Source of the DNA: Solirubrobacteraceae bacterium
GTDB taxonomy: Bacteria > Actinomycetota > Thermoleophilia > Solirubrobacterales > Solirubrobacteraceae
Assembly: GCA_025451035.1 (NCBI GenBank)
Contig: JANWLE010000010.1
Span: 1-64,000, forward strand
Reading direction: 5' to 3'
DNA length: 64,000 nt
This document shows, one piece after another, positions 26,039-45,184 of the stretch (position 1 is the stretch's first letter; each line of letters begins with the position of its first letter). The position numbers and the translations under genes are program-made. The notes below the pieces were generated by a model. The model saw only the letters and a program-made list of their open reading frames with translations. It did not search any database and was not told where the DNA came from.

Positions 26039-26052
26039 TTAGGTATGCCTAA
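26039..26052. promoter_or_regulatory. Second TTAGG-type inverted repeat before the NRAMP gene
   Basis: TTAGGTATGCCTAA has the same layout as the site at 25171: half-site TTAGGN, two bases, NCCTAA. It lies 87 bp upstream of the favoured NRAMP start, the position expected for a metal-responsive repressor. Confidence 0.6.
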
Positions 26053-26138
26053 TGCGGGCCATAGAGCACCTGCCTGGTGAGGGCCGGACCCTCGTGGCAC
26101 TCTCACAGGTGAGTGACGTAGACCGGCTCGGCGGGCCT

Positions 26139-27560: not shown

Positions 27561-27561
27561 C

Positions 27562-29493: not shown

Positions 29494-30888
29494 TCACGTC
29501 CCGAAGAGCTTTCGCGCGGCCTGCGCGAGCTGGCCGCCCCCATCGGAGCTGAGAGCAGACCGGGGCGCGTGAAGGATGTCCGCCACGAGACGGTTGCTCA
29601 TCTGCTCGATCAGCGAACGCTCCTTCGCCGGCAGGTCGGGCAGACGCCGAAACAGCCACTCCAGCTCGCTTCGGCGCTGCTCGTCCGCGGCCTGACCGAT
29701 CGCCTGTATGGCTGGCACCGAGTTTCGCGAGCGCAGCCAGCGCAGGTATGTGTCAGCGGACTGCTCCGCGAGCCGCTCGAGCTGCCCGCGCAGCGGATCC
29801 TCGGACTCCACGCCCTTCTCCGCAGCCAGATCGTCGGCCGAGACGAAGCGCTCGCCGAGCGCAGCCTGAAGCGCCTTGGGAACCGCGCTGGGCGAGGACA
29901 TGTCGACGACGACCGCGCCGGTCTCGACCAGCCGGCGAGCGTCCCGCTCGCCGGGCGACCAGACTCCACCGAGGGCAACGATCACGCCCGCGAGCGGCGG
30001 CACGACATCCTCGCCTTCGAACGGGATTACGCTCGCACCGACCTCGCGCGAGAGAGCGAGCGCTCGCTCGCTGGTCCTGCTCGTGATGATCACCTCGGCG
30101 CCCCGCCTCGCCGCGGCAAACGCTGCGAGGCGTCCCATCACCCCGGCGCCGACTACCAGGATCCGCTGGCCCTCGGGCTCCCCGCAGTACTCTTGCATGC
30201 GCTCGAGCGCGACGTCGGCCAGCGATCGCGTCGCGCCGCCGAAACGGCTGCGAGCACGCCTGCCAGTTTGAAGCGCGATCTGGAACAAGCGGTCCAGCGC
30301 GGGATCAAGCGGACGCTCGCCGCGGCGGCGCTCAAGCGTCTCGCGCAGCTGGTGCAGCAGCTGGTTCTCGCACAACACGGCGCTGTCCAGCCCGCAGGCG
30401 ACCGCGATCAGGTGTCGCGCCGCCTCGATGCCGTCGAAACGCTGCGATCCCGAGGGTGGCTGCGGTAGCGTCCGCTCCGCGAGCTCGTCGAGCGCGACGT
30501 ACAGCTCCACGCGATGACAGGTGTGGACGACGATGGTCGCCTCGCTGAGTTGCAACTCGGCCAGTTCGCCCGCGAACGCCTCGCGCGCGGGCGCCGGTAC
30601 ACGGGGTGCCTGCGCCACGAGCGCGGTTAGCGAAGGCAGCGGCGGGCAGTCTTCAGCCCGTTCGTGGACCGCGGCGGCGGGGGCCTCGATGCCCCGTCCT
30701 TGCGGCACCGGTAGCAGGTCGAGAATCGCCGAGCGGGCGAAGCGGCGGTGACCGCCTGGCGTCGTGAAGGTCCTGACATCCCCATTCGCGCTCCAGCGGC
30801 GCAGCGTGGCCGGCGAGACGCCGATGAGCGCACAGGCCTCCTGCAGGGTCAGCCACTCCTCGTAAGCCGGCATGTGAACGGTGCTCAT
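29494..30888 (-). CDS. hemA: HTH-domain fused to glutamyl-tRNA reductase
   Basis: 464 residues in two parts. Residues 8-60 are a BldC/MerR-like helix-turn-helix: EWLTLQEACALIGVSPATLRR, WSANGDV, then PGGHRRFARSAILDLL. From about residue 85 it is a glutamyl-tRNA reductase, the first committed enzyme of C5 heme synthesis. It has the catalytic Cys in VVHTCHRVELYV, the LDSAVLCENQLL helix, the NADPH loop VVGAGVMGRLAAFAA and the C-terminal dimerisation helices. The first HemA strand with GxxHRxAP is missing and appears replaced by the HTH. Its ATG overlaps the upstream cytochrome stop (ATGA), so it is the last gene of the cytochrome operon. It may be a paralogue dedicated to, or regulating, this cluster. 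Confidence 0.85.
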   Translation of the reverse strand: MSTVHMPAYEEWLTLQEACALIGVSPATLRRWSANGDVRTFTTPGGHRRFARSAILDLLPVPQGRGIEAPAAAVHERAEDCPPLPSLTALVAQAPRVPAPAREAFAGELAELQLSEATIVVHTCHRVELYVALDELAERTLPQPPSGSQRFDGIEAARHLIAVACGLDSAVLCENQLLHQLRETLERRRGERPLDPALDRLFQIALQTGRRARSRFGGATRSLADVALERMQEYCGEPEGQRILVVGAGVMGRLAAFAAARRGAEVIITSRTSERALALSREVGASVIPFEGEDVVPPLAGVIVALGGVWSPGERDARRLVETGAVVVDMSSPSAVPKALQAALGERFVSADDLAAEKGVESEDPLRGQLERLAEQSADTYLRWLRSRNSVPAIQAIGQAADEQRRSELEWLFRRLPDLPAKERSLIEQMSNRLVADILHAPRSALSSDGGGQLAQAARKLFGT

Positions 30889-32480
30889 AATCCTCGCTCC
30901 TTGCTGCTCAGGACCTGCTGCTTCTTGTGACATCTGGCGCAGAAGGCCTCTTGGTGGCAGTACGCGCAGGCCTGTATGCCGGCCCTTTCGATCACCTGCG
31001 GGTGGTGGAAGAGCATTTCTTCGTGTCTGACCTGCGTCGCGCCGGAGCTGTGGCAGTTCGTGCAGAAACTGCTTTTCGCCGCGGACGGTTCGAGCGCGGC
31101 GGGCGAGCGCGCGTGTTCGAAGACCCACAACTTGGACAGATGGTCCGCCGGGGGGCTGAGCAGCGACACGCTGGATATCGTCGACCCTGACTGCGGGAAG
31201 GTATGGCACGTAGTGCATTCCCAGGGCACGGTGTTGCTCAACAGACGCCCGTCGGAGCCAACCTTGAAATGGGCGCCATCGTGGCAGCGGAAACAGCCGG
31301 GGCCCGTCTGGTGGCCGAGGTCGTTGGGATAGTCGGCCGCGATCATGTTCATTTCAGGATCCGCGACAAGCGGGTAGATCACCTTCATCTCGTCGACCGC
31401 CTGCTTGACATCCCCCTGGTGGCTTCCGGCGAGCAGCGGATACTTCTGCGCGTACGTACCGCGGATACCTTCGATCGCCTTGTCCGCCTCCCCAGTCGAG
31501 CGGTAGCGCTTGCCGAGGAGGGCTACCGCTTCACGCTTGATGTAGGGCAGTGACCGGCTGATCTTGTCTTCGGAGATCGCGGTGTCGAGCGCTTCGCCGG
31601 GGCTCGGGAATTCGTGTCCGACGCGGTTGTGGCAGCTGATGCAGTCGATCTGCCTCACAGTCTCGGTCTGCTTGATCCGGTTGATCTCCGGCAGCACGTC
31701 GCTTGAGACGCCGACCTGCGAGCGGCCAATGAACTGTTCGCTGCGGCCATCCTGGTAGACGACCCGCATCCAGTCGATTTTCTGAGCGTCCTTTTCGGGA
31801 CTCGCATATTCGACCTTCACCCCGATGTGCCAGTGCGCGCCGCGGCTTGCCGTGCCTTCGCCGAGGCGCCTGGGGCGCACGACGACCGCCACCATCTGCC
31901 GCGTATTTGCCTCATCTTCGCGGTAGTAGGAGTGCATCACGAGCTTGATCGGGCCGTTTTCGTTGGTGAGAGAGCTCAGCGAATGGCATTTCATGCAGGT
32001 GTCCTGGGTGGACGGAAGCAGGTTGTGGTCAGGCGGCGGGATCGGCTTCGGATAGGTGCCGGCGACCGTCTGAAGGAGCTGGCTCGCGCCTTTGATCTTC
32101 GATTCGACGAAGCCGGCGACGCCAGGCCCGACATGGCACTGCCCGCAGGCCACGTTGCGGTGGACCGACAGCCTGTTCGCCTGCGCCTCCGGTGCCATCG
32201 TGTGGCAGCGCGAGCAGAAGCCAGATGTCTCGCTCCACTTCTGAAAGGTGCTGCCGCCCACCACCGCTACCGAGCAGAAGCCGCCGACGGCGACCAGCGA
32301 GACGAGAAAGCCGCGGCCGCTGCGCGGCGGGTGGGCCCGCCGTAGGATCCCGGCAAGGAGCTCGCCAGCGCGGCTGTGGCGCCGCCCTGCGGGCTGGCCC
32401 GAGGCACGTGGCCTACCTCTTGGCGCCGGCAAGGCCGAGTCCGATCTGTTTGAGGTCTTCGTCCATTTCCGGCGGGTCAA
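30885..32480 (-). CDS. NapC/NirT-like nonaheme membrane cytochrome c
   Basis: 531 residues, one N-terminal membrane helix (about residues 58-78: FLVSLVAVGGFCSVAVVGG) and nine CxxCH heme motifs: CSRCH, CGQCH, CMKCH, CISCH, CFRCH, CTTCH, CTNCH, CAYCH and CARCH. The first two, with CHTMAPEAQANRLSVH between them, are typical of NapC/CymA quinol dehydrogenases. Such proteins take electrons from menaquinol and pass them outward. No ATG fits; TTG at 32480 or 32432 are candidates, overlapping the TlpA-like gene. It is the natural electron entry point for the three hexaheme cytochromes in the same run. Confidence 0.9.
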   Translation of the reverse strand: MTRRKWTKTSNRSDSALPAPRGRPRASGQPAGRRHSRAGELLAGILRRAHPPRSGRGFLVSLVAVGGFCSVAVVGGSTFQKWSETSGFCSRCHTMAPEAQANRLSVHRNVACGQCHVGPGVAGFVESKIKGASQLLQTVAGTYPKPIPPPDHNLLPSTQDTCMKCHSLSSLTNENGPIKLVMHSYYREDEANTRQMVAVVVRPRRLGEGTASRGAHWHIGVKVEYASPEKDAQKIDWMRVVYQDGRSEQFIGRSQVGVSSDVLPEINRIKQTETVRQIDCISCHNRVGHEFPSPGEALDTAISEDKISRSLPYIKREAVALLGKRYRSTGEADKAIEGIRGTYAQKYPLLAGSHQGDVKQAVDEMKVIYPLVADPEMNMIAADYPNDLGHQTGPGCFRCHDGAHFKVGSDGRLLSNTVPWECTTCHTFPQSGSTISSVSLLSPPADHLSKLWVFEHARSPAALEPSAAKSSFCTNCHSSGATQVRHEEMLFHHPQVIERAGIQACAYCHQEAFCARCHKKQQVLSSKERGL

Positions 32481-33012
32481 GCGAGGAGATCCTGATCTCC
32501 CGCAGGATCCCGGAGCTATCTATGAAGAAATGCGAGGGGATGCCTACGATCCGGTACTTGGAGGCGATCTTCCCGTCGGCGTCCTCGACCTTTGTGTAGG
32601 TGAGGCCGACCCGCTGCGCGTATTCCTCGATGTCAGACTTGCTGTCCTGGACGAACACCGCCAGTACAACCAGGCCGCGCGCACGGTACTTCGCGTAGGC
32701 GGCCTCGATGTCCGGATTCTCCGCCCGGCACGGCTGACACCACGGGGCTCCGAAGGTCAGCCAGACGGGATGGCCCCGCAACCCGCTCAGCCTCGCCCTC
32801 GCGCCTTCGATCGTAGTCGCGGTGAAGTCCGGCGCCGGCTTTCCGACTTCAGGCGCGGGGCCAGTCGCGCCGCCCGAGAGGACGACCGAGGTGAAGCTAC
32901 CGCCCGACGCCGGCCGGTTCGTCATATACGAGGCCGCGAGGACGGCGGCGGCGGTCACGCCCATCACCATGAGGTTCCGGGAACGACCCAGGCCATTGCG
33001 TCGACTAGCCAT
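32413..33012 (-). CDS. TlpA/ResA-like thioredoxin for cytochrome c maturation
   Basis: 199 residues: an N-terminal membrane anchor (LMVMGVTAAAVLAASYM) then a thioredoxin fold with active site APWCQPCRAENP and cis-Pro region VGIPSHFFIDSSG. ResA-type proteins keep apocytochrome CxxCH cysteines reduced outside the membrane. The ATG at 33012 overlaps the ccsA stop by 8 bp. Part of the System II set ccdA-resB-ccsA-tlpA. Confidence 0.9.
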   Translation of the reverse strand: MASRRNGLGRSRNLMVMGVTAAAVLAASYMTNRPASGGSFTSVVLSGGATGPAPEVGKPAPDFTATTIEGARARLSGLRGHPVWLTFGAPWCQPCRAENPDIEAAYAKYRARGLVVLAVFVQDSKSDIEEYAQRVGLTYTKVEDADGKIASKYRIVGIPSHFFIDSSGILREIRISSLDPPEMDEDLKQIGLGLAGAKR

Positions 33013-33883
33013 AGCTGTGCAGACCCCCGAAGAAGAGGTTTCCGAAATAGGTGAACAGCGCTGCCGCGAACACGAGCGTGAGCAGCAACGCGGCTCGCTG
33101 GCCACGCCAACCGCGGGCGCTGCGTGCGTGGAGGTAGGCCAGGCACACGATCCAGGTGACCAGCGACGCTGACTCCTTGGGATCCCAGCTCCAGTACCTG
33201 CCCCACGCGATATCAGCCCAGATCGCCCCGAGCACAATCGTCAAGGTCAAAAACGGGAAGCCGATCAATGTTGCCCTATAGGACAGGTCATCCAGCAACT
33301 CGCGCTTGGGCAGCAGCCGCCGCCCGCCGCCGCTCTGCACCAGGTACAGCAGCGCGGCGGCGAACCCGACCGCGAACGCGCCGTAGGCGATCACCGCGGT
33401 CGCTACGTGGACCGTTAGAAGCAGGTTGTTCTGGAGCGCGGGGACCAGCGGCGTGGCCGTGCTCGGGACCGTCGTCGAGTAGAGGAGCATCCCCAGCGCG
33501 ACCGGCAGCACGATCACGCCGATCGTCCACTGGCGATAGCGCCGCAGGAAATAGGCATTCACGCTCAGGGCGCCCCAGGCGAAGGCGACGGAGAACTCGT
33601 ACATGTTCGCGAACGGGCCATGACCGGTCGCCCCCCAGCGCAGGGCGAGCGCCGCGGAGAGGAAGCCGAACGCCAGCCACGAGGTCAGCGTGCCGAAGAC
33701 GGCTACGCCGCGAGCAACTTCGCCGTCTTGCACAGCGGTGATCTTTGCGCCGACGGTGTCCGCCGCCACCATCACGCGAGCCTGAAAGATGCGGTCTGAC
33801 GCGAAGGCCAGCACGTAGCAGACCAGCGCCAGCACCACCGCGATCATGCCAGCGAAGACACAGTACTGAGACAGGCTAAGCAT
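33005..33883 (-). CDS. ccsA: Cytochrome c synthase subunit CcsA/ResC
   Basis: 292 residues, about eight membrane helices. The heme-handling motif is WGRYWSWDPKESASLVTW, the WGxxWxWD signature of the CcsA/CcmF family, with further conserved His in VHVATAVIAYG and LHARS. It works with ResB/Ccs1 to deliver heme and attach it to apocytochromes. Overlaps resB by 8 bp. Confidence 0.95.
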   Translation of the reverse strand: MLSLSQYCVFAGMIAVVLALVCYVLAFASDRIFQARVMVAADTVGAKITAVQDGEVARGVAVFGTLTSWLAFGFLSAALALRWGATGHGPFANMYEFSVAFAWGALSVNAYFLRRYRQWTIGVIVLPVALGMLLYSTTVPSTATPLVPALQNNLLLTVHVATAVIAYGAFAVGFAAALLYLVQSGGGRRLLPKRELLDDLSYRATLIGFPFLTLTIVLGAIWADIAWGRYWSWDPKESASLVTWIVCLAYLHARSARGWRGQRAALLLTLVFAAALFTYFGNLFFGGLHSYG

Positions 33884-35354
33884 CGGCTCGGCCTCCTTTC
33901 TTGGTTGCAGGCCCCGGGCCCACGGAGCGCCGCAGGTCCGCGGCGAGACGCTCGAACTGAGCGGCGAATCCAGCGTGGTGTCGCTCGATCGCCGCGACTG
34001 CGACCTCGCTGCCGCCGGGCCCGGGACAGATCACGGCCCTGACCCGCCGGTGCGGGAACAGGAAGACCATGAACAGTCCGAGCACGAGCAGCGCCGAGCC
34101 GATCCAGACGATCGTCGACCCGGGGTCTTGGGCGACGATCAGACCGGTGAACTCGCGTTCGCGCACAAACGTGAAGCCCACGCCGCCGATGCTCGCCGGC
34201 TTGCCCGGCGAGAGCGTCTGGATCCCAACCGGCGTGTTGCTCCCGGACCTGTATACCTCGAGCTGCGTGTCACCGACAGGGATGCGCGGGTCGACTTCAC
34301 CCGAGGCTGGGGAGACGACGAACACGCTCAGCCCCTGCTGAGGAAGCAAGAAGCGCCCGACGCGATCCTTTTCGTTCTGTGACACATACAGCAGCGCGAC
34401 GCCTTGGTTGAAGAGGACACGCCCGGTGGCGGTCCTAGCCTGCATCACGACCGCCGGCCCGAAGAACGACTGGTAGAAGGTGATGCCGTCGTAGCGCACC
34501 GGATGGTTGACGCGGTCATCTTGCGTCTTGACCGGGACCCCGCCCTTGTACAAGACGAGCCGGCTTTCGTAGCTTCGGGGCGGACCGCTGGGGTAGTAGG
34601 AGTCCGCGAACGACTTGGCTTCGACCGCCAGGCCCGTTCCATGCCCCACGTTCACCCTGCTGCCGACGGGAACCGCAACCGATTCGTCGCGAAACCCACT
34701 GGTCGCAGTGATCAGCGCGCCGACGAGGATGAGCACGAAGCTCAGGTGAATGAAGATCCTACCGAACGGCGCCCAGCGGAAGCGGTCGGCGCAGACGTGG
34801 ACCCGCTCGCCGTCTCGCTTGACGCTAACCCGGAAGTAGTTTTTGCGAAAGGCGCTGCGCAGCGCGGCCAACGCGACCGCGGGATCCTTCTCCGATGTGA
34901 TCTTCGCCCGTTGTGGCGCCCGCTCGAAGAAAGCTTCGGTCATCACCATGCGCGGCCTGGTCGCCGTTCTCCACAATCCAGCTGAGCGGCGCAGCGAGCA
35001 CGTGATGAGGCTGGCCGAAAGGAGCAGCAGCGTCCCCTTGAACCAGACCGAGGAGAACACGGAGAAGAGCCCGAGTATGTCCAGGACCTCGGTCCACCCT
35101 CCATACTTCGGGCGCACTGCTTCCAGCCATTCCGCGTAGGCGGCCGGGTTGCCCCTGACCGCGGCGGGGGCCTGGCTGAGCAGCGTGCCGACGAGGGTGA
35201 GCAGGCCGAGCACCAGCAAAAGCATCAGCGCCACCCGCATCGAGGTCAGCTTGCGCAAGATCCAGGCGTGCGGCGCGACCCCCGCGCGGCGAAGCTCTCT
35301 GGCGGGCCGAGGTGGACGTCCGGAACGTGAGGCTGTGCTGACGGTGGAGCTCAT
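33876..35354 (-). CDS. resB: Cytochrome c synthase subunit ResB/Ccs1
   Basis: 492 residues with the ResB plan: membrane helices near 40-60, 100-118, 190-210 and a last one near 420-440, with a large outside domain between the third and fourth. Segments LLLVLGLLTLVGTLLSQ and FGRIFIHLSFVLILVGALI are typical. Partner of CcsA in System II. A 50-residue cytoplasmic tail follows the last helix. Confidence 0.92.
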   Translation of the reverse strand: MSSTVSTASRSGRPPRPARELRRAGVAPHAWILRKLTSMRVALMLLLVLGLLTLVGTLLSQAPAAVRGNPAAYAEWLEAVRPKYGGWTEVLDILGLFSVFSSVWFKGTLLLLSASLITCSLRRSAGLWRTATRPRMVMTEAFFERAPQRAKITSEKDPAVALAALRSAFRKNYFRVSVKRDGERVHVCADRFRWAPFGRIFIHLSFVLILVGALITATSGFRDESVAVPVGSRVNVGHGTGLAVEAKSFADSYYPSGPPRSYESRLVLYKGGVPVKTQDDRVNHPVRYDGITFYQSFFGPAVVMQARTATGRVLFNQGVALLYVSQNEKDRVGRFLLPQQGLSVFVVSPASGEVDPRIPVGDTQLEVYRSGSNTPVGIQTLSPGKPASIGGVGFTFVREREFTGLIVAQDPGSTIVWIGSALLVLGLFMVFLFPHRRVRAVICPGPGGSEVAVAAIERHHAGFAAQFERLAADLRRSVGPGPATKKGGRADA

Positions 35355-35364
35355 GTGCGCTCGC

Positions 35365-36102
35365 TCATAGTTCGACCAGCGGGAGCGCGCCGGATAGCCG
35401 CCCGAAGGTGTTCGTGATCATCAAAAAGCCGATCCCGACGAGCATCGCCCCGGTCACGACGCCGACCGCGGTGTCGTGCCTGCCTAGCCAGCCGAGCCGG
35501 TCGCTCACCGCGGTGACACCGAGCGCGACCAGCACGAACGGGATGCCCAATCCGATTGCGTACACGAGCAGCAGCGCGACGCCCTGGACGACGCTTGCGC
35601 TGACCGAGGCCATCCCGATGATCCCTCCCAGGATCGGCCCGATGCAGGGGGTCCAGCCGGCGGAGAAGATGACGCCGAGCAAGGCCGAGCGCCCGTAGCG
35701 GCGAGCGCCGGACACGTTCGTTCTCCCATCGCTGGCGGCGCCTGCGGCAGCACCGACCGGCAGCCGCTTCTCACGGTAAAGAGCCGAGATGTTGATCACG
35801 CGGGCAACGTGCAGGCCCATGAAGACGAGGATCGCGCCGCCAAGCTGTCGAATCAGGCCGACGTAATCGCGAAACAGGTAGCCGATCAACCCGACAGACG
35901 CCCACATCGCGACGAAGACGACCGAGAAGCCGGCGACGAACGCGAGCGCATGAAGCAAGGCGACGCGCCGCGACGCCTTGGAGCGGTCGGGGCTCGAGGC
36001 GACCATGTAGCTGACGTAGCCGGGAACGAGCGGCAGGCAGCACGGTGAGGCGAAGGACACGATTCCGGCGAGGAACGCAACCGGAAGGCCGACCGCGTTC
36101 AT
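35365..36102 (-). CDS. ccdA: CcdA/DsbD-type transmembrane thiol reductase
   Basis: 245 residues, six helices. The two redox cysteines are in FASPCCLPLVPGYVSYM (helix 1) and GWTPCIGPILGGI (helix 4), the paired PCxxP/TPC layout of CcdA. It carries reducing power from cytoplasmic thioredoxin to the TlpA/ResA-like protein for heme attachment. Start overlaps the TPR gene stop by 4 bp. Confidence 0.93.
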   Translation of the reverse strand: MNAVGLPVAFLAGIVSFASPCCLPLVPGYVSYMVASSPDRSKASRRVALLHALAFVAGFSVVFVAMWASVGLIGYLFRDYVGLIRQLGGAILVFMGLHVARVINISALYREKRLPVGAAAGAASDGRTNVSGARRYGRSALLGVIFSAGWTPCIGPILGGIIGMASVSASVVQGVALLLVYAIGLGIPFVLVALGVTAVSDRLGWLGRHDTAVGVVTGAMLVGIGFLMITNTFGRLSGALPLVEL

Positions 36103-36890
36103 TTTTTCTCAAGCCCCTTTATGTGCATCGCGATCGTCTTGGCCACAGCTGACTTCGGCGCGAGCTTCAGGACCTCATCCCAGTACTTCTTCGCGCTAGC
36201 CATATCGGGCGGATCTTTGCTGACATACAAAAAGCCGAGGTCGTAATACGCTTCGACGTTCTTGGGGTCGGCCGCGATGACTCGCTGCCAGTCGCTGCGA
36301 GCGTCGGCGGCGTCGCCGATGTTGAACTCCGCCGCGCCGAGCGCCAGGCGCGCCGTCACGTTCTTCGGGTCGGCTTGCACAGCACGCTTCATCCACCCGC
36401 CAGCGCTGTTGTATTCATGGGCTTCGAAGAAGGTGTCTCCGAGCGCGATCAGCGTCTTGGCGTCCTTCGGTCGCGCTTTGAGTCTTTCCATCAACTGCGA
36501 GACACGTGCCCGCTGCGCGGAGCTGAGGCCGTGCTGTTCGCTAGAGCCTCCCCGAGGACTGGCCTTGCCGCTGGAGCTCCCGCCCAGGTCGTAGACGCCG
36601 ACGACGACGCCCGCGCTCACAGCAAGAGCGATCGCGCCGATGACGACTCGCAGCAGCGGAGCCGCCCGCCTTCCCGCCGAGTGAGAGCTCGCCGCGTACG
36701 CATCTTTGACCGCGTCCATCTGTTCTGTCGCCCAGCCGCGCGCACTCTCCGGGGCGCCCTCGAGGAAGTTCACGAGCTCCCTGTGGGCCTGCTTGGCTTC
36801 CTCGGCACTCTCACCTGGCCTGGCGCCGACGGCGCCGGGGTCAAGTCGGTCGCTGTTCGCGTGTCGGCTGGGTTTTGTGGAGGGCGTCAT
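36099..36890 (-). CDS. Membrane-anchored TPR protein
   Basis: 263 residues. A membrane helix near 84-103 is followed by about three TPR units (KTLIALGDTFFEAHEYNSAG, VTARLALGAAEFNIGDAADA, VEAYYDLGFLYVSKDPPDMA). The cytoplasmic N-terminus is charged. TPR proteins of this kind (NrfG/CcmI-like) hold apocytochromes during heme attachment. Position between the cytochrome genes and ccdA supports that role. Confidence 0.85.
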   Translation of the reverse strand: MTPSTKPSRHANSDRLDPGAVGARPGESAEEAKQAHRELVNFLEGAPESARGWATEQMDAVKDAYAASSHSAGRRAAPLLRVVIGAIALAVSAGVVVGVYDLGGSSSGKASPRGGSSEQHGLSSAQRARVSQLMERLKARPKDAKTLIALGDTFFEAHEYNSAGGWMKRAVQADPKNVTARLALGAAEFNIGDAADARSDWQRVIAADPKNVEAYYDLGFLYVSKDPPDMASAKKYWDEVLKLAPKSAVAKTIAMHIKGLEKK

Positions 36891-37058
36891 GATCTCAAGC
36901 CTCTCTTGCTCTTTCCCTCAGCGAGGGTCGTCGAGATGCCTTTGCGGGGCTTGCGGCGTCGCTGACGAATTAACCAATCTTGGACAGTTTCGAGCGCAGC
37001 TTTTTCCGGCACAACCCGCCGGCCGACACGTTTCGGGTAGAGGTGCGCCAGCCCGAAA

Positions 37059-37095
37059 CATCCGGGAGATACACCACGTCTATATCTCCCGGATG
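37059..37095 (-). terminator. Perfect 13-bp hairpin between cytochromes and maturation genes
   Basis: CATCCGGGAGATA (37059-37071) and TATCTCCCGGATG (37083-37095) pair perfectly around an 11-base loop. In the transcribed direction only a short TTT follows, so it may be a leaky terminator or a processing/stabilising hairpin. Confidence 0.6.
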
Positions 37096-37140
37096 CCGTT
37101 GAACGCGAACGGGAAGCGCGCAAAGGCGCCACATGCAGCG

Positions 37141-37189
37141 AAAGGCGGTGGCCACCATGGAAGGGGGTTCATCGGCGACCACCGCCTTT
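37141..37189 (-). repeat. 11-bp inverted repeat after the last cytochrome gene
   Basis: AAAGGCGGTGG (37141-37151) pairs with CCACCGCCTTT (37179-37189) across a 27-base loop that contains a smaller GGTGGCCACC palindrome. Second structure in the same transcribed gap. Confidence 0.55.
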
Positions 37190-37312
37190 GCTTGTTCGCG
37201 ACCCCATATTCGTGATCACCGGCGGTCATCCGCCGCGATCACTACTGGGTTTGCTCCCGGTGGCCGTATGTGCATGGCAAGGCGGGCCGCCGGGAGCTTC
37301 CTCTCCGGCCGT

Positions 37313-38314
37313 TTACTTGTTGTGGCACATCTGGCAAACGCCCCTGTTGTCGGCTCTCAGGAGGAAGCTGTTGGAGCCGGCCGATTTGCCGTCGGGGTAG
37401 TTGACGGTAGTTGCGTAGCCTCCCATGGCCGCATCCGAGCCATGCGCGACGTGACACTGGATGCAGCTGGGCTTGGTCTTGTTGGGAGTTTCTTTTTCGA
37501 GTTTTTCGTATTCTTCCTGCGTGTAGAGGCTGCGGTGGCGGTAGGCGAACACCGCGTCTCCCGTGAAGGTGTTGCCGCTTCCGCTTTCACCCAGCAGGCG
37601 CGTGTGACAGGTCGCGCACCACGAGGAGATCTGGTAGCGGAACTGCGGGTTCTTGGTTTCCCAGCTCTGCCAGTAGTTGGTCGTCGTGTATTCCTTTTCT
37701 GTGACGTCAGGTATCTTCACTTCCGTCTTGACCCCCGATTCCTGCGGGATCGGTCTCAGGATCCGGTAGTTGCCGTTGCCGTGCGGGTCATGGCAGGAGC
37801 CGCAGCGCAGTGAAACTTCCTTGCCGTTGTTCGCGGTGGCGCTGAATGCTCCGTTGCCCCAGGCGACCTGCATGGAAGAGTCGACCGTGTGGGCCGAGGT
37901 CGTCGCAGCACCGGTGCCCAATGTCGGGATTTCCCCGCTCACCAGCCTTCCGGATACGTAGTTGCCTTTTGGTTTGCTCGAGTCGATCAGAGCGAACTTG
38001 AAGCCGCCGCCGCGCAGAGCGCTGGCGGCACCAGTCCGTTCATGGCTCGAGTAGCCGGCGCCATCCGCGACGTCGAGGCTCGAGCCGCCGGCCCCGGAGC
38101 CGTGGCAGGTGTAGCAGAGCGCTTCCTCTGAGGATTCCTTCAGCAGATAGGGCGCCTGGGCGGTGTGAGCCCGATGGCAGGCGGCACAGCGATCCGTGGT
38201 GGCTCCCATACCCATCGCATGTGGGCCATTGTCAGCCCAAGCGGCGGCGGGAGCGACAACCAGCAGCAAGGACATGCAACCAAGCGTGAAGAGCGAGACC
38301 GCCAGCCTTCTCAT
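37313..38314 (-). CDS. OmcS-like hexaheme cytochrome c, copy 1
   Basis: 333 residues: signal peptide (MRRLAVSLFTLGCMSLLLVV, cleavage near AWA), then six CxxCH motifs with distinctive surroundings: CAACHRAH, LCYTCHG, CGSCHDPHGNGNYR, WCATCHTR, CIQCHVAHGS and CQMCHNK at the very C-terminus. The same order and context (CxxCHxxH, CxxCHDPHG, WCxxCHT, CxxCHxAH, terminal CxxCH) is what I recall of Geobacter OmcS, whose subunits stack into heme filaments. AGGAGG precedes the ATG at 38314. Exported, probably cell-surface or extracellular. Most downstream of three tandem copies. Confidence 0.88.
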   Translation of the reverse strand: MRRLAVSLFTLGCMSLLLVVAPAAAWADNGPHAMGMGATTDRCAACHRAHTAQAPYLLKESSEEALCYTCHGSGAGGSSLDVADGAGYSSHERTGAASALRGGGFKFALIDSSKPKGNYVSGRLVSGEIPTLGTGAATTSAHTVDSSMQVAWGNGAFSATANNGKEVSLRCGSCHDPHGNGNYRILRPIPQESGVKTEVKIPDVTEKEYTTTNYWQSWETKNPQFRYQISSWCATCHTRLLGESGSGNTFTGDAVFAYRHRSLYTQEEYEKLEKETPNKTKPSCIQCHVAHGSDAAMGGYATTVNYPDGKSAGSNSFLLRADNRGVCQMCHNK

Positions 38315-40002
38315 TCTCAGACCTCCTGGGCAAAGCATCTGCTTTGGCGTTGTCGATTATCAACACGTGATTAACGTGCCTAGCAGGGACAAGCGCAATC
38401 CGCCGGGTGGTATGTATTGGGTAGAGGTGGCCCTGTACAGGTCCGCCGGCATAGCCCATGGGACATATGGCTCTGCTTGGACCGTGCCTGGGACGACATC
38501 TGGATCCAGGGTCATTCGTAGTGGCACATCCGACAAGTGCCTTTGTCGTCGACTCGCAGCAGGCGGCTGTCTGAGGCCGCGGGCACCGCGTTAGGACTGT
38601 GCACTGCCATTGACGACGCTTCTTCGACGCTGGCGTTGGAGCCGTGTGCGACGTGACACTGGATACAGTTCGCCGAGCCCTGCGCCTTCTGGTCGGAGAT
38701 GTGGCGGTCGGTAAAGACCGCGTCGCCGCTTTCGGTGTAGGAAGTGTCGCTGAGGTAACGCGTATGGCAGGTGGCGCACCACCCCGAGATGTCTTCGATG
38801 AAGCCCGGCGCGTACTGGTCCTGGACATCCCAATAGTTATCGGTCGTGTAGACCTTCGCGGTGGCGTCAGGGACGTACACGCCGCTCGCCCCGGATTCCA
38901 GCGGGATCGGCCTCAGGATCCGGTAGTTGCCGTTGCCGTGCGGGTCATGGCAGGAGCCGCAGCTCAGCGAGATCGTCTTGCCATAGTCCACTTCCGTGCT
39001 GACCGGCCCGCTGCCCCACGCTGTCTGGCTCGAGGAGTCCACCGAATGGGCTGAGGTGATCGCTGCCCCTTCCGCCGTCACCGGGACCAGGCCGCCAGGG
39101 TCCGATCCCCCGCTCTGCTGACCCGAAGGATGGGCCGAGTCGATCAGCGCGTACTTGAAGCCGCCGCCACGCAGTGGGAGGGGTTTACCGCTGCGCAGCG
39201 CGTTCGCGTAGCCGACGCCGTCCTTCACGTCGGTGCTGGCGCCGGCCGCCGCGGCGCCATGGCAGGTGTAGCAGAGAGCTTCACCGGCCTGCTTGAGCAG
39301 GTACGGCGACTGCGCAGTGTGGACCCGATGGCACAGCGCGCAGGTGTCCGGGGTGGCGCCCGCACCCATGATGTGGGGGCCGTTGTCGGCCGCGGACCGC
39401 GTGGCTGTGGCAAACAGCAACACAACACAGCCCAGCGCCAAAAGCGCCAGGTTGCGTGCGTTTTCTTTTGCTCTCGTACTGTCCAATATGCTGACGCTTC
39501 GTTTTCGTGGCCTTCCTCGCTTGCCCGCTGTCACTTGTTGTGGCACATCTGACAGACACCCATGTTGTCGATTCTCAAAAGCCGGCTGTCGGGACCAGCG
39601 GGAGTGCTCACCGCGGAGCTGCCATCGGGGTTGGCGATAGCAGCTGAGTAGGTTCCCATGCTCGCATTCGAGCCGTGCGCCACATGGCACTGGATGCAGG
39701 TCGGCGTGCTCTGTGAGGTCTCGTTGGTGCGGTGACGGTAAGTGAACACCTTGTCGCCGCTGCTGGTTGTGGCGCTGTTGTGACCAGCCAAATAGCGCGT
39801 GTGGCAGGTGGCGCACCAGGACGAGATCTTCTCCACGAATTCGGGCGCGGATTCATCCTCGACCTCCCAGTAGTTTTCGGTCGTGTAGACCTTGGCGGTG
39901 GTGTCGCCGATCGACACGCCCGTCGTGGCCCCTGATTCCTGCGGGATCGGTCTCAGGATCCGGTAGTTGCCGTTGCCGTGCGGGTCATGGCAGGAGCCGC
40001 AG
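37744..40002. repeat. 62-bp near-identical blocks in the three cytochrome genes
   Basis: Blocks at 37744-37805, 38901-38962 and 39941-40002 encode the third heme motif and the following ILRPIP stretch. The first and third are identical over 62 bp; the middle one differs at one base. Flanking sequence is much more diverged, which suggests gene conversion or strong selection. Confidence 0.75.
38512..39486 (-). CDS. OmcS-like hexaheme cytochrome c, copy 2
   Basis: 324 residues. A hydrophobic signal (NLALLALGCVVLLFATATRS) leads to ADNGPHIMGAG and six motifs: CALCHRVH, LCYTCHG, CGSCHDPHGN, WCATCHTR, CIQCHVAHGS and CRMCHYE at the end. No ATG is present before the signal; TTG at 39486 is the best start. 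The gap to copy 1 (38315-38511) has no gene. Sequence between motifs 3 and 4 is shorter in shared elements than copies 1 and 3, so it is the most diverged subunit. Confidence 0.87.
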   Translation of the reverse strand: MDSTRAKENARNLALLALGCVVLLFATATRSAADNGPHIMGAGATPDTCALCHRVHTAQSPYLLKQAGEALCYTCHGAAAAGASTDVKDGVGYANALRSGKPLPLRGGGFKYALIDSAHPSGQQSGGSDPGGLVPVTAEGAAITSAHSVDSSSQTAWGSGPVSTEVDYGKTISLSCGSCHDPHGNGNYRILRPIPLESGASGVYVPDATAKVYTTDNYWDVQDQYAPGFIEDISGWCATCHTRYLSDTSYTESGDAVFTDRHISDQKAQGSANCIQCHVAHGSNASVEEASSMAVHSPNAVPAASDSRLLRVDDKGTCRMCHYE

Positions 40003-40526
40003 CGCAGGGCGACCTGCTTGCCGTAACTCGCTTCGCTGCCGTTGATCGGCCCGTTGCCCCATGCCATCTGGCTCGAAGAGTCCACCGAGTGGGCCGAGGT
40101 GACCGCTGCGCCGCTTGCCAGCGTCGGGATTTCGCCTACGTATCCGTTGCCCGACGGGTGAGCCGAGTCGATCAGCGCGTACTTGAAGCCGCCGCCACGC
40201 AGCGCCATCTTCGCACCGGTACGCCCGGCGCCCGAATAGCCTACGCCGTCCGCGACATCGAGATTGGAGCCTGTCCCCGAGGTGCCGTGGCAGGTGTAGC
40301 AGAGGGCTTCCTCAGGCTGCTTGAGCAGATAGGGGGCCTGCGCGGTGTGGGCGCGATGGCACATCGCGCAGCGGTCTGTGGTGGCTCCCATGCCCATGAT
40401 GTGCGGACCGTTGTCGGCCGCAGCATCACAGCTGAAATACAACGACACGACACAGGCCGCGGCGAAGACCGCCGCTCCTCTCATCATCCGTATCGCCTGC
40501 ATAGGCGTCCAGCCCCTAGCTCTCAA
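39531..40526 (-). CDS. OmcS-like hexaheme cytochrome c, copy 3
   Basis: 331 residues from 40526, or 323 from a second ATG at 40502. Signal peptide (AAVFAAACVVSLYFSCDAAA) then six motifs: CAMCHRAH, LCYTCHG, CGSCHDPHGN, WCATCHTR, CIQCHVAHGS and terminal CQMCHNK. First cytochrome transcribed, 12 bp after the NHL gene, so propeller and cytochromes are co-expressed. Very close to copy 1 in the CHDPHGNGNYRILRPIP block, including identical DNA. Confidence 0.88.
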   Translation of the reverse strand: MRARGWTPMQAIRMMRGAAVFAAACVVSLYFSCDAAADNGPHIMGMGATTDRCAMCHRAHTAQAPYLLKQPEEALCYTCHGTSGTGSNLDVADGVGYSGAGRTGAKMALRGGGFKYALIDSAHPSGNGYVGEIPTLASGAAVTSAHSVDSSSQMAWGNGPINGSEASYGKQVALRCGSCHDPHGNGNYRILRPIPQESGATTGVSIGDTTAKVYTTENYWEVEDESAPEFVEKISSWCATCHTRYLAGHNSATTSSGDKVFTYRHRTNETSQSTPTCIQCHVAHGSNASMGTYSAAIANPDGSSAVSTPAGPDSRLLRIDNMGVCQMCHNK

Positions 40527-40538
40527 TGCATTCGGCTC

Positions 40539-41609
40539 TCAGTATTCCCAGACCTGGACCCTGCCGTTTTCACGATCGGTGATGTAGATTCGCCCGCCTT
40601 CGATTGCGATCCCGTTCGGGTACTGGAACTGCCCGTTGCCGAGCCCTTCCCCGCCGAACGATCCGATATACCGCGGCACTTCCGCGACGCGGCTTGAGAG
40701 TTGATAGACATCGACCACCTGGGCGGTCGCGTCGACCACATAGAGCCGGTTGTGGCTGTCGATCGCCACCCCGCGCGGGAGGTTGAGGTCTCCTTCTCCG
40801 ACCCCGCGCGCGATCGAGCTGACGAGCCTGCCGGACGGGTCGAGGATCGCCAGTCTGCCGTCATTGCTGTCGGCCACGTAGACATCGCGGTGCGAGTCGA
40901 CCGCCAGGCCATTGGGGAACCAGAACATGCCGGCAGAACCGACCTTGCGCAGCGACTTGCTGCCGCCGGCGCCAATAACCAGCACGCGGTGGTTGCGGCG
41001 GCTACCACCAACGTCGGTCATGTAGAGGTCCCCTTCGGCGCCAAAAGTCAACCCAAGCGGCTGGGAGCCATTTCCTAGGGCGCCGGAGGGCCGCATGGAG
41101 CGCAGATACTTGCCGTTGCTGGCGTAGACGTCGATGTCTTCGCGCAGGCGGTCGCTGACGTAGACCTGTTCGGTGCGTGGGTCAACCGCTACATAGACCG
41201 GCAAATGCCAGTTGTGGTTGCCGTTGACCGGGGGCGGCGCGAGTGAGCCAACCCGTTTGCCGGAACGATCGAAGACCCGCACCAGACGCGGCCCTTCGCT
41301 TTCGGTCACATAGATCCTTTCGCCGGATGGGCTGACCGCCACACCCATCGGCTGACTAACCCCATAGATGCTGGATACGTAGTGGGGGAGCGTGGACGAG
41401 AGGCTCGGAAGCGGGCTGTGTCCAGAGAGCGCGCGGACGATGAGCAGGGCGAGGACAGCGAGGACGACGAGAATCGCCGACAGCGCGGCGATCTTTTGCC
41501 TTAGGCGCTTGCGCTCCTCCTGATCACTGGGCTGCTCTGCCTCGCCGCCCGCACCACGGTCAAGCGCCACCTGCAGGCGCAGCGGAAAGCTGTCGTCCCG
41601 GGGTGGCAT
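40539..41609 (-). CDS. Membrane-anchored NHL-repeat beta-propeller
   Basis: 356 residues: cytoplasmic N-terminus, one membrane helix (about 39-61, LSAILVVLAVLALLIVRAL), then a six-bladed NHL propeller on the outside. Blades carry the usual repeat (PMGVAVSPSGERIYVTE, PVYVAVDPRTEQVYVSD, PLGLTFGAEGDLYMTD, PNGLAVDSHRDVYVADS, PRGVAIDSHNRLYVVD, PNGIAIEGGRIYITD). Directly upstream of the three hexaheme cytochromes. An NHL gene next to omcS is also what I remember from Geobacter. Likely an assembly or docking factor for the cytochromes. Confidence 0.9.
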   Translation of the reverse strand: MPPRDDSFPLRLQVALDRGAGGEAEQPSDQEERKRLRQKIAALSAILVVLAVLALLIVRALSGHSPLPSLSSTLPHYVSSIYGVSQPMGVAVSPSGERIYVTESEGPRLVRVFDRSGKRVGSLAPPPVNGNHNWHLPVYVAVDPRTEQVYVSDRLREDIDVYASNGKYLRSMRPSGALGNGSQPLGLTFGAEGDLYMTDVGGSRRNHRVLVIGAGGSKSLRKVGSAGMFWFPNGLAVDSHRDVYVADSNDGRLAILDPSGRLVSSIARGVGEGDLNLPRGVAIDSHNRLYVVDATAQVVDVYQLSSRVAEVPRYIGSFGGEGLGNGQFQYPNGIAIEGGRIYITDRENGRVQVWEY

Positions 41610-41610
41610 C

Positions 41611-42561
41611 TCAGCCGGCCTTCACGCTGACGCCCAGCCTGGCCAGGCCGTTGCGGGCGTTGAAGTTCTTGGGGTCGGCCGCGAGGACCTTCTGGTACCA
41701 GCGGGCCGCGCGCGCACGTTGCGACTGGGTCTCTGCGGCCATGCCAAGCCCGAGCATCGCTTCGATCGCGGCCGACCCGGAGGTCAGGTGTTCGAGTCGC
41801 GCCGTGCCGTCCGCCGGTTTCTTTTCGCAGAGCTGCACCATCGCCTCGGCGTATTCAGACTGGGGTCCGCGGTGCTGGGCTTGGTAGGCCCTCGCCAACT
41901 GCTCATAGGGTTCGCACCAGCCGCCCGGCACGTACAGCACTGCCTGCCTGAGCGCGTTGACCGCCGTTTGGTAGGAGCCTGTTTCGATGGAGGCCCTCCC
42001 CAGCAGATACCACGCATCGGCGTCCGTGGGTTCTATCTTGAGCGCCTTCCTCACTTCGTGAATGGCCGCACTCGCCTGGTGCTGTTTGAGCATCACCACG
42101 CTCAAGCCGTAGTAGGCGGTCTCTAGCTGCGGATTGACGCGGGAGTACTCTTTTCCTGTCGCATTGCCGATCAGCGTCCGGAAAGACCGCCTCGCTTCGG
42201 CGAGGTCTCCCTCTTGAGAGAGGATTTCCGCGCGCCCGAGCAGCGCCGTGGCGTCGTCCGATTCAACCTTGAGGACCTCCTTGTACTGTTCGAGCGCCTG
42301 GTCGGGCTTCTTCGCGGCCCTGTAGACGTTCGCCAGCTCCAGCCGCAACTCGACGTTCGTCGGGTTTGAGCGAACCGCGCGTTCCCCGGCCGTTATCTGT
42401 CTTTCCACCAGCGATGGACCCGAATCAGGCTGATTGAGATAGTAGGCGATCGCCACGGCAGCACTGCCGAGCACCACAGCCTTGAGGCCGATCCTGATCA
42501 AACGGTCGAGGGTTTGCTCTTGCACACCGAGATTGTCGCGGCTTGCCGACCCCCGACTCAA
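41611..42561 (-). CDS. Membrane-anchored TPR protein, upstream copy
   Basis: 316 residues with an N-terminal membrane helix (IGLKAVVLGSAAVAIAYYL) and about six TPR units (VELRLELANVYRAAKKPDQA, ATALLGRAEILSQEGDLAEA, ADAWYLLGRASIETGSYQTA, YEQLARAYQAQH). TTG at 42561 or GTG at 42525 may start it. First structural gene of the cytochrome run, one base before the NHL gene. Probably a scaffold for apocytochrome or filament assembly. Confidence 0.85.
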   Translation of the reverse strand: MSRGSASRDNLGVQEQTLDRLIRIGLKAVVLGSAAVAIAYYLNQPDSGPSLVERQITAGERAVRSNPTNVELRLELANVYRAAKKPDQALEQYKEVLKVESDDATALLGRAEILSQEGDLAEARRSFRTLIGNATGKEYSRVNPQLETAYYGLSVVMLKQHQASAAIHEVRKALKIEPTDADAWYLLGRASIETGSYQTAVNALRQAVLYVPGGWCEPYEQLARAYQAQHRGPQSEYAEAMVQLCEKKPADGTARLEHLTSGSAAIEAMLGLGMAAETQSQRARAARWYQKVLAADPKNFNARNGLARLGVSVKAG

Positions 42562-42607: not shown

Positions 42608-42633
42608 AGCGCCTATATCCCCCGTTAGGCGCT
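42608..42633 (-). terminator. Hairpin at the end of the LuxR-type regulator gene
   Basis: AGCGCCTA (42608-42615) pairs with TAGGCGCT (42626-42633) around a 10-base loop, overlapping the stop codon region of the regulator. No T-run; may reduce read-through from the regulator into the cytochrome run. Confidence 0.4.
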
Positions 42634-43308
42634 CTCGCCTCGTCCCAAACCATGACGGACGATGTACGCGGCGGCCTGTGTGCGATTTTCGAGCTGAAGC
42701 TTCTCGAGGGAGTTGTGGATGTGATTCTTCACAGTCCCCTCCGTGATGAAAAGGCTCGTGGCGATCTCCTTGTTGCTGAGTCCGTCAGCCACCAGTTGCA
42801 GGACCTCCAGCTCACGCCGCGTGAGCGTCGGCGCATCGGACGGGGGGACCGGCAGGCTCGCCAGCGCGGTGCCGTCGCGGATCTGCCCGAGCAGCCGCTT
42901 GGCTATTGCGGGCGACAGGGGAGATTCGTCGCGCATAACCGCCCTAATGAGAGAGAAGAGTTCCGCGGGGCGGAGGTTCTTGAGCAGATATCCATGCGCG
43001 CCGAAGCGGATCGCGTCGAAGAGATGGTCATCGGAGTCTGACACCGTCAGCATGACGACCTTGGCGTTCGGGACCTGTTCACAAATAAGGCGCGTCCCCT
43101 CAACGCCATCCATGACCGGCATCTCAATGTCCATGACTACCACGTCGGGCTTCAGCGCACGTGCCTTCTCGACCGCCTCTAGGCCGTTCTCGGCTTCGCC
43201 GACGACTTCCAGATCTTCCTGTGTTCCAATGAGCTCGGCTATCGCCGTGCGGAAGAGCGCCGTGTCGTCGGCGAGCAGGATGCGCGTGGTGCTGGTCGGC
43301 GACTGCAC
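42625..43308 (-). CDS. NarL/LuxR-type response regulator
   Basis: 227 residues. The receiver domain has ILLADDTALF, phospho-acceptor Asp60 in VVVMDIEMPVMDG and LTVSDSDDHLFDAI. The output domain has LTRRELEVLQLVADGLSNKEIATSLFITEGTVKNHIHNSLEKL, a clear LuxR HTH. It lies directly upstream of, and co-directional with, the cytochrome run, so it likely controls that run. The gene one base upstream is only a decayed kinase tail, so its partner is probably elsewhere; the NarL-type kinase at 27562 is the best candidate. Confidence 0.93.
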   Translation of the reverse strand: MQSPTSTTRILLADDTALFRTAIAELIGTQEDLEVVGEAENGLEAVEKARALKPDVVVMDIEMPVMDGVEGTRLICEQVPNAKVVMLTVSDSDDHLFDAIRFGAHGYLLKNLRPAELFSLIRAVMRDESPLSPAIAKRLLGQIRDGTALASLPVPPSDAPTLTRRELEVLQLVADGLSNKEIATSLFITEGTVKNHIHNSLEKLQLENRTQAAAYIVRHGLGRGESA

Positions 43309-45182: not shown

Positions 45183-45184
45183 CG

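What the first reader, a model, noticed from the sequence alone, without database searches (positions are those of the whole stretch)
29494..42561. Candidate cytochrome-nanowire (OmcS-type) system in a Gram-positive actinobacterium
Three tandem exported hexaheme proteins carry motifs in the order I recall for Geobacter OmcS: CxxCHxxH, LxxCxxCH, CxxCHDPHG, WCxxCHT, CxxCHxAH and a C-terminal CxxCH. In OmcS filaments the extra His of the first CxxCHxxH (His16) ligates a heme of the next subunit; all three proteins keep it (CHRAH, CHRVH, CHRAH). The same run supplies an NHL propeller, two TPR scaffolds, complete System II maturation, a nine-heme NapC-like quinol oxidase and HemA. That is a full build-and-feed kit for extracellular electron transfer or long-range conduction across a thick wall.
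Basis: partly seen in the sequence, partly recalled or inferred. Interest (0 to 1): 0.93.

Follow-up and report, generated by a model that had tools for sequence, protein, structure and literature searches.

The report
OmcS-family cytochrome module in soil actinobacteria
A soil actinobacterium carries three relatives of the protein that Geobacter polymerises into electricity-conducting filaments, set in a gene block that would load them with heme and feed them electrons, and the same block occurs in what is very probably a harmless culture-collection bacterium where the idea can be tested.

Summary
Three exported hexaheme cytochromes (37313-40502, minus strand) lie between TPR/NHL genes and a System II maturation, nine-heme NapC-like and HemA block. 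The OmcS link is now tested: a profile of 88 family members finds Geobacter OmcS (6ef8) as the best of 177,635 PDB sequences (E 7e-19, hemes 1-5 colinear), and residue-shuffled OmcS stays far below. Two AlphaFold2 models match OmcS end to end (Z 8.3 and 7.3); no other compared chain exceeds Z 2.9, though Foldseek alone found nothing significant. The position of OmcS His16 is His in 88 of 88. All three paired-CXXCH hits of this genome lie here. The module recurs in Actinomycetota and Chloroflexota, including a 4,024,382-bp chromosome, the published length of the Intrasporangium calvum type strain, an aerobic BSL-1 isolate. Polymerisation, inter-subunit ligation and electron export are inferred, not shown. 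One OmcS homolog in a Coriobacteriales genome was already published (PMC7399161), so this is a new variant of a known kind. New: the conserved operon, aerobe-capable soil lineages, and a testable cultured host.

The parts
42625..43308 (-). NarL/LuxR-type response regulator, upstream of the block
   Evidence: Pfam Response_reg + GerE; a similar regulator on the same strand upstream of TPR2 in L046, L049, L052, L055, L060, L062, L107
41611..42561 (-). TPR2: membrane-anchored TPR protein
   Evidence: Pfam TPR, one TM at 21-39; within 10 kb upstream of a hexaheme hit in 46 of 79 loci
40539..41609 (-). NHL: membrane-anchored NHL beta-propeller
   Evidence: Pfam NHL 4.7e-32, TM 40-58; within 10 kb upstream of a hexaheme hit in 59 of 79 loci
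39531..40502 (-). hexC: exported OmcS-family hexaheme cytochrome (ORF opens at 40526; ATG at 40502 used)
38512..39486 (-). hexB: exported OmcS-family hexaheme cytochrome (ORF opens at 39816; TTG at 39486 inferred; the alignments used 38512-39501)
37313..38314 (-). hexA: exported OmcS-family hexaheme cytochrome (ORF opens at 38338; ATG at 38314 inferred; alignments used 37313-38323)
36891..37312 (-). intergenic gap with three strong hairpins between structural cytochromes and maturation genes
   Evidence: inverted repeats; RNA fold z -3.47 for 37040-37115 only
36099..36890 (-). TPR1: membrane-anchored TPR protein, CcmH/CycH-like, likely apocytochrome handling
   Evidence: TPR_CcmH_CycH 1.5e-9, below its curated cut-off; TM 79-97
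35365..36102 (-). CcdA-type thiol transporter
   Evidence: DsbD_TM 2.7e-13
33876..35354 (-). ResB (System II cytochrome c synthase subunit)
   Evidence: ResB 4.4e-72
33005..33883 (-). CcsB/CcsA (System II heme handling and ligation subunit)
   Evidence: TIGR03144 3.5e-64 over cut-off; PF01578 2.3e-43
32413..33012 (-). ResA/TlpA-like thiol-disulfide oxidoreductase (ORF opens at 33237; ATG at 33012 inferred)
   Evidence: PRK03147 1.1e-26 (below its cut-off), AhpC-TSA 6e-24
30885..32480 (-). nine-heme membrane-anchored NapC/NrfH-like cytochrome, presumed menaquinol oxidase
   Evidence: nine CxxCH; Cytochrom_NNT 4e-11; NrfH structure 2j7a 1.4e-6; TM 57-75
29494..30888 (-). BldC/MerR-type HTH fused to a second, divergent glutamyl-tRNA reductase (HemA); ORF opens at 31218, ATG at 30888 inferred
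   Evidence: HTH_17, GlutR_N, GlutR_dimer, BldC model below its cut-off; another, higher-scoring GlutR_N hit on contig C63

Best explanation
A dedicated extracellular electron-transfer module. The nine-heme NapC-like protein takes electrons from menaquinol in the membrane and passes them to exported hexaheme cytochromes of the OmcS family. These relay electrons through the thick wall to acceptors outside (humics, Fe(III), partner cells). They most likely do so as head-to-tail polymers, in which the CHxxH histidine of one subunit ligates a heme of the next. CcdA, ResB, CcsB/CcsA, the thioredoxin and TPR1 load heme; HTH-HemA boosts heme supply; the membrane-anchored TPR2 and NHL proteins are conserved partners, probably assembly or anchoring factors. 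Shown by computation: the genes, OmcS homology and predicted fold, a full set of 12 conserved histidines, and conserved gene order. Inferred: quinol oxidation, polymerisation, wall crossing, and the roles of TPR2, NHL and HTH-HemA. I hold the OmcS-family electron-conduit reading at about 0.75 and actual filaments at about 0.45-0.5.
For: Profile of 88 members: OmcS best PDB sequence, E 7.2e-19, colinear over hemes 1-5; 20-member profile 1.1e-10. OmcS as phmmer query finds 3 of 221 multiheme ORFs below 1e-5, two of them six-heme family members (1.8e-9, 4.9e-7). Controls: OmcS 71.3 bits against a maximum of 24.1 (300 shuffles, heme C/C/H fixed) and 37.4 (300 shuffles, all His fixed too); 1 of 719 segment-order permutations reached it, and that one keeps hemes 1-5 in order. 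Of 45 columns conserved in at least 90% of members, 33 are identical in OmcS, 15 of these outside CxxCH. His at the OmcS H2, H16, H110, H147 and H335 positions in 86, 88, 88, 87 and 88 of 88. AF2: 6ef8_A Z 8.3, 3.8 A, 194 residues, model 28-323 on chain 1-406; L051 model Z 7.3, 3.9 A, 191 residues, next of 389 chains Z 2.1. Synteny. No NrfA-family hit in G000 or G022.
Against: Foldseek gave no significant PDB match for either model; the tool warns that Z under 8 may be only a common arrangement, and the second model scores 7.3. Single-sequence phmmer of one window protein, and the 3-row profile, did not list OmcS. Segment-permuted OmcS still averages 47.4 bits, so heme order adds only part of the score, and heme 6 is not in the profile alignment; hhalign aligned only hemes 1-4. 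The histidine at window 257 (88 of 88) aligns with OmcS Lys278, so one ligand is not matched column for column. The His276 column is partly fixed by the search pattern C[LI][TQS]CH[RVQ]AHG. No wall anchor was found on the hexahemes, and no multimer prediction was possible. Pairwise identity to OmcS is only 26-28%. The genome also has two heme-copper oxidase subunit I hits, so EET is not its only respiration.
Confidence: 0.62

Rival explanations
1. OmcS-family cytochromes that act as wall-embedded or secreted monomers (relay or shuttle), not filaments.
For: PMC12954529 (passage) says Geobacter encodes three other hexaheme homologs closely related to OmcS, beside the one identified as the filament. 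In Gram-positive Carboxydothermus the 11-heme OmhA is a loosely bound surface cytochrome that is easily sheared off (PMC7829351 passages). Six of six hemes could be bis-His ligated within one chain (12 conserved His).
Against: End-to-end OmcS fold match. The OmcS His16 position is kept in 88 of 88. The AF2 N-terminal segment 29-59 around heme 1 is the least confident part of the window model, compatible with, but not proof of, a segment ordered by a neighbour.
Confidence: 0.35
2. The block mainly serves nitrite ammonification or general cytochrome c maturation, and the hexahemes are electron donors to an enzyme.
For: In the chromosome taken for I. calvum the block is followed by a four-heme NapC/NrfH-like ORF and a NrfA-family gene. 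CcsB/ResB serve any c-type cytochrome (recalled).
Against: No NrfA-family hit in the window genome or in G022 (0 of 2). The paired-CXXCH and NapC-family hits of the genome all lie in this locus; other cytochrome families were not searched. The hexahemes have the OmcS fold.
Confidence: 0.1
3. The module takes electrons in (from Fe(II), humics or partner cells) for aerobic respiration, rather than exporting them.
For: Two heme-copper oxidase hits in the genome; the I. calvum type strain is described as aerobic; multiheme conduits can run both ways (recalled).
Against: A NapC/NrfH-type quinone-reactive cytochrome usually oxidises quinol (recalled for the family); no test of direction here.
Confidence: 0.15

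Closest known systems
Geobacter sulfurreducens OmcS (PDB 6ef8, 6nef), hexaheme filament cytochrome
   Same: Six CxxCH in the same order, colinear profile match over hemes 1-5, conserved extra histidines including the His16 position, same predicted fold over the full chain.
   Different: About 27% identity; shorter chain; one distal-His column (window His257) falls on OmcS Lys278; monoderm host; operon with TPR, NHL, System II and NapC; polymerisation unproven.
OmcS homolog of anode-biofilm Coriobacteriales S27 (PMC7399161, passages seen)
   Same: Actinobacterial hexaheme OmcS homolog (28% identity) from an electrode community; the precedent for OmcS relatives in this phylum.
   Different: Coriobacteriales with 37 multiheme cytochromes; the passages seen describe no operon; in the window genome the paired-CXXCH hits sit in one block.
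OmcE (PDB 7tfs), tetraheme filament cytochrome
   Same: CHxxH at its first heme motif and weak profile similarity (2.4e-9).
   Different: Four hemes; Z only 2.9 against 8.3 for OmcS.
Solirubrobacterales MAG of Trout Bog with seven predicted wall multiheme cytochromes (PMC6344600, passages seen)
   Same: Same order; four of the cytochromes in one cluster; electron transfer on the wall proposed.
   Different: Up to 15 hemes per protein; the passages seen make no OmcS comparison for it.
NrfH (PDB 2j7a) / NapC family
   Same: N-terminal membrane anchor and NapC/NirT domain in the nine-heme protein.
   Different: Nine to ten hemes; no NrfA-family hit in the window genome.

Membership tests
OmcS family (hexaheme cytochrome) | six CxxCH motifs in one exported chain | tested here: met
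   signal-like hydrophobic N-termini
OmcS family (hexaheme cytochrome) | significant colinear sequence homology beyond the heme motifs | tested here: met
   E 7.2e-19, OmcS top of the PDB; shuffle controls 0 of 600 reach it, order permutations 1 of 719; 15 of 27 conserved non-CxxCH columns shared. Hemes 1-5 only; single sequences are too distant
OmcS family (hexaheme cytochrome) | OmcS fold | tested here: met
   predicted models only: Z 8.3 and 7.3, full chain, next best 2.9 and 2.1; Foldseek alone not significant
OmcS family (hexaheme cytochrome) | twelve His axial ligands including the CHxxH histidine at OmcS position 16 | tested here: met
   12 His columns in 86-88 of 88 members; 11 fall on OmcS His, one (window 257) on Lys278. 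That His16 is the donated ligand is recalled; Filman 2019 (PMC6584659 passages) says one of 12 ligands comes from a neighbour at heme505
OmcS nanowire | heme ligated by a histidine of the next subunit | not testable with these tools
   no multimer or heme-bound modelling available
OmcS nanowire | forms extracellular filaments | not testable with these tools
   needs cryo-EM of the organism or of purified protein
Geobacter OmcS pathway | charging by PpcA-E periplasmic cytochromes (PMC10954620) | not tested
   no PpcA search was run; the window has a NapC-like nine-heme protein instead
System II cytochrome c maturation | CcsA/B, ResB, CcdA, ResA-like set | tested here: met
NapC/NrfH quinol dehydrogenase | membrane-anchored NapC/NirT heme domain | tested here: met
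   Cytochrom_NNT over cut-off, TM; quinol oxidation not tested
NrfH equivalog (TIGR03153) | curated NCBIfam cut-off | tested here: not met
   49 of 134 bits: it is NapC/NrfH-like, not NrfH

The most novel reading that the evidence does not exclude
Aerobic, mycelial or soil-dwelling monoderm bacteria (Solirubrobacteraceae, Intrasporangium, relatives) build OmcS-type heme wires through their thick wall from a compact, laterally spread operon whose TPR2 and NHL proteins are a dedicated assembly or anchoring machine. Cytochrome nanowires would then be a portable module shared with Chloroflexota, not a speciality of anaerobic diderms.
Probability: 0.4. Interest if true: 0.9.

Novelty: new variant of a known kind. 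Interest (0 to 1): 0.72.

Why it matters
How monoderm bacteria move electrons across a thick wall without porins is open. This gives a compact, conserved gene module with an OmcS-fold cytochrome as its core. It extends OmcS relatives beyond Geobacter and one reported Coriobacteriales genome to soil actinobacteria and Chloroflexota, with possible consequences for Fe(III) and humic respiration in soils and peat.

Tried and rejected
Single-sequence phmmer and the 3-row profile against the PDB did not find OmcS; only wider profiles did. Foldseek gave nothing significant for either model; VIA-align on Foldseek's candidates found OmcS in both (7 and 389 chains compared). I expected an NHL gene beside Geobacter omcS from memory; the table seen in PMC10599522 lists GSU2505 as hypothetical, so that claim is dropped. 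6r2q (deposited chain name cystathionine beta-synthase; recalled to be MtrA), OmcE and 9yuq were considered as closer relatives and set aside on score and extent. The rival that the block serves NrfA was tested in the window genome and one congener (no hit). A careful tree did not finish; only the quick, midpoint-rooted tree is used. Paper searches run: (one search matched 1,027 papers, 20 listed); PMC7399161 and PMC6344600 bore most directly. No random-locus control was run for the NHL and TPR neighbours, and tblastn with window queries undercounts distant ones. The hexaheme set was selected before counting: 85 of 150 profile-matching ORFs (of 221 ORFs with at least three CxxCH in 79 loci) were kept (over 195 bits, 6-7 hemes, under 560 aa), plus 3 from the window. 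The lipobox scan covered the first 60 residues of each ORF; for hexB it was repeated from the inferred start; none found, nor LPxTG.
Full report
Observation. A six-frame scan of the window (66% G+C) finds three ORFs with six CxxCH and one with nine, all on the minus strand within 30885-40538, and three short ORFs with one motif each. The hexaheme proteins are 56-65% identical to one another, begin with a hydrophobic signal-like segment and carry no LPxTG motif or lipobox. The flanking genes are as described: NHL propeller, two TPR proteins, CcdA, ResB, CcsB/CcsA, a ResA/TlpA-like thioredoxin, a nine-heme protein with a NapC/NirT N-terminus and a glutamyl-tRNA reductase. A response regulator at 42625-43308 belongs to the block by synteny.

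Host and distribution. The window is part of a 2.87-Mb, 94%-complete genome. Contigs of two congeners (60,202 and 5,559 bases) have the lengths of records titled Solirubrobacteraceae bacterium. Counting the window's own genome, the hexaheme family occurs in 3 of 24 genomes of the genus (2 of 11 good-quality ones) and 12 of 396 genomes drawn from the phylum at E <= 1e-10, some matches being partial. In the window genome all three Paired_CXXCH hits lie in this locus, as do the three NapC-family hits, one of them below cut-off. The genome also has two COX1-family hits and no NrfA-family hit. So this is an aerobe-capable organism whose multiheme genes, as far as these families show, form one locus.

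Relation to OmcS. A single window protein does not find OmcS by phmmer, nor does the 3-row profile. A 20-member actinobacterial profile does, as the best of 177,635 PDB sequences, E 1.1e-10. An 88-member profile gives 7.2e-19, aligned colinearly through hemes 1-5, ahead of 6r2q (7e-13; recalled to be MtrA), 9yuq (1e-9) and OmcE (2e-9). hhalign gives E 8.7e-19 over hemes 1-4. In the other direction OmcS as query, in a set of 221 multiheme ORFs, hits two six-heme family members at 1.8e-9 and 4.9e-7 and a five-heme ORF of L124 at 2.5e-10; no other ORF passed 0.01. Because heme motifs could drive such scores, I scored randomised OmcS. OmcS gets 71.3 bits. With the heme Cys, Cys and His fixed and all else shuffled the maximum of 300 is 24.1; with every His fixed too the maximum of 300 is 37.4. 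Permuting the order of the six heme segments leaves a mean of 47.4 bits, and 1 of 719 orders reaches 71.3; that one keeps hemes 1-5 in order and only moves the sixth. So most of the score is local similarity around the hemes, and order adds to it. On an alignment to which OmcS was added, 33 of 45 columns conserved in at least 90% of the family are identical in OmcS, 15 of them outside the CxxCH residues.

Ligands. Twelve histidines are conserved in 86 or more of 88 members: six proximal and six others. Five of the six others align with OmcS His2, His16, His110, His147 and His335. The sixth (window His257) is placed on OmcS Lys278; the nearest OmcS histidines, 257 and 309, lie 21 and 31 residues away. 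The His16 position is kept in 88 of 88. Filman et al. 2019 (PMC6584659, passages) state that 11 of 12 OmcS ligands are from the same subunit and one, at heme505, from a neighbour; that this one is His16 is recalled. The His276 column was partly fixed by the search pattern.

Fold. AlphaFold2 with the 88-row alignment gives mean pLDDT 79 and pTM 0.79, the weakest part being residues 29-59 around heme 1. VIA-align places OmcS 6ef8_A first at Z 8.3, 3.8 A, 194 residues, model 28-323 on chain 1-406, with OmcE at 2.9; only seven chains were compared. A second model (mean pLDDT 74), of the Intrasporangium calvum PheN6 protein (L051), scores OmcS at Z 7.3, 3.9 A, 191 residues, end to end, while the next of 389 chains reaches 2.1. 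Foldseek alone found nothing significant for either model, as may be expected of a coil-rich chain folded without its hemes. I read this as membership of the OmcS family; it does not prove a filament.

The operon. tblastn of window proteins against 79 named loci (the best of 169 confirmed) shows the order regulator - TPR2 - NHL - hexaheme(s) - TPR1 - CcdA - ResB - CcsB - TlpA - NapC - HemA in Solirubrobacteraceae (L046) and a 'bacterium' MAG (L049), nearly the same in Intrasporangium calvum PheN6 (L051; the regulator is on the opposite strand and the last gene matches by its HTH part), and parts of it in Chloroflexota and other Actinomycetota. NHL lies within 10 kb upstream on the same strand in 59 of 79, TPR2 in 46 of 79, both in 46; at least three of six downstream maturation/NapC genes are seen in 7 of 79. 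These are lower bounds, because many contigs are cut and queries came only from the window; no random-locus control was run. TPR2-NHL-hexaheme is thus the core; roles in assembly or anchoring are my inference. In the quick tree the window clade, with Intrasporangium, Propionibacterium and Nanopelagicales sequences, sits among Chloroflexota sequences and apart from the main Coriobacteriia-rich clade (sets of 95-96% SH-aLRT, midpoint root), compatible with transfer between phyla; bin contamination and paralogy are not excluded.

A cultured host. In the family of I. calvum PheN6, 5 of 186 genomes, PheN6 included, carry the hexaheme. One, G491, has it on a 4,024,382-base contig, exactly the published length of the I. 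calvum type strain genome (PMC3035309 abstract; described there as aerobic, Gram-positive, mycelial and biosafety level 1, abstract and passages). It holds TPR2, NHL, hexaheme, a seven-heme protein, TPR1, CcdA, ResB, CcsB, TlpA, a ten-heme NapC-like protein and an HTH protein without a HemA domain, followed by a four-heme NapC/NrfH-like ORF and a NrfA-family gene.

Known and new. PMC7399161 (passages) already reports one OmcS homolog in an anode-biofilm Coriobacteriales (28% identity, six motifs). PMC6344600 (passages) reports wall multiheme cytochromes in a Solirubrobacterales MAG. PMC7829351 (passages) describes Gram-positive surface cytochromes such as the 11-heme OmhA. PMC10954620 (passages) speaks of OmcS homologs in diverse bacteria, without 'Actinobact' or 'Gram-positive' in its text. 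In ten searches of the held library (some listings capped) I saw no paper describing this operon; key papers are not held. So: a new variant of a known kind. Family membership is well supported; the wire is a good candidate, unproven, and testable in a culture-collection strain.

Noticed in passing
29494-30888 (-): HemA of the block is a second, divergent glutamyl-tRNA reductase fused to a BldC/MerR-type HTH domain; kept as a fusion in the congener L046, while the presumed I. calvum chromosome has an HTH protein without HemA there and L047, L049 and L114 have HemA without HTH. Another, better-scoring hemA is on contig C63.
   Followed up: partly
36891-37312: Three strong hairpins fill the gap between the last hexaheme gene and TPR1; the same gap in L046 also has inverted repeats. 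Possibly sets cytochrome-to-maturation expression ratio.
   Followed up: partly
44052-47544 (+): hemE (the only PF01208 hit in the genome), ferrochelatase and an amine-oxidase-fold flavoprotein, perhaps protoporphyrinogen oxidase, lie divergently next to the block.
   Followed up: partly
L142 8922-11291 (-): Seven-heme partner protein with a long Pro/Thr/Ser-rich N-terminus between the hexaheme gene and TPR1 in the presumed I. calvum chromosome; seven-heme ORFs follow the hexaheme in several other loci (L047, L049, L051, L055, L056, L107) but not in the window.
   Followed up: partly
26052-29061 (+): Nramp-type metal transporter followed by a histidine kinase just outside the block.
   Followed up: no
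L119, L122: Carboxydocella and Thermincola loci combine family hexahemes with giant cytochromes (42 hemes; at least 26 in an ORF cut by the locus end) and NHL genes.
   Followed up: no
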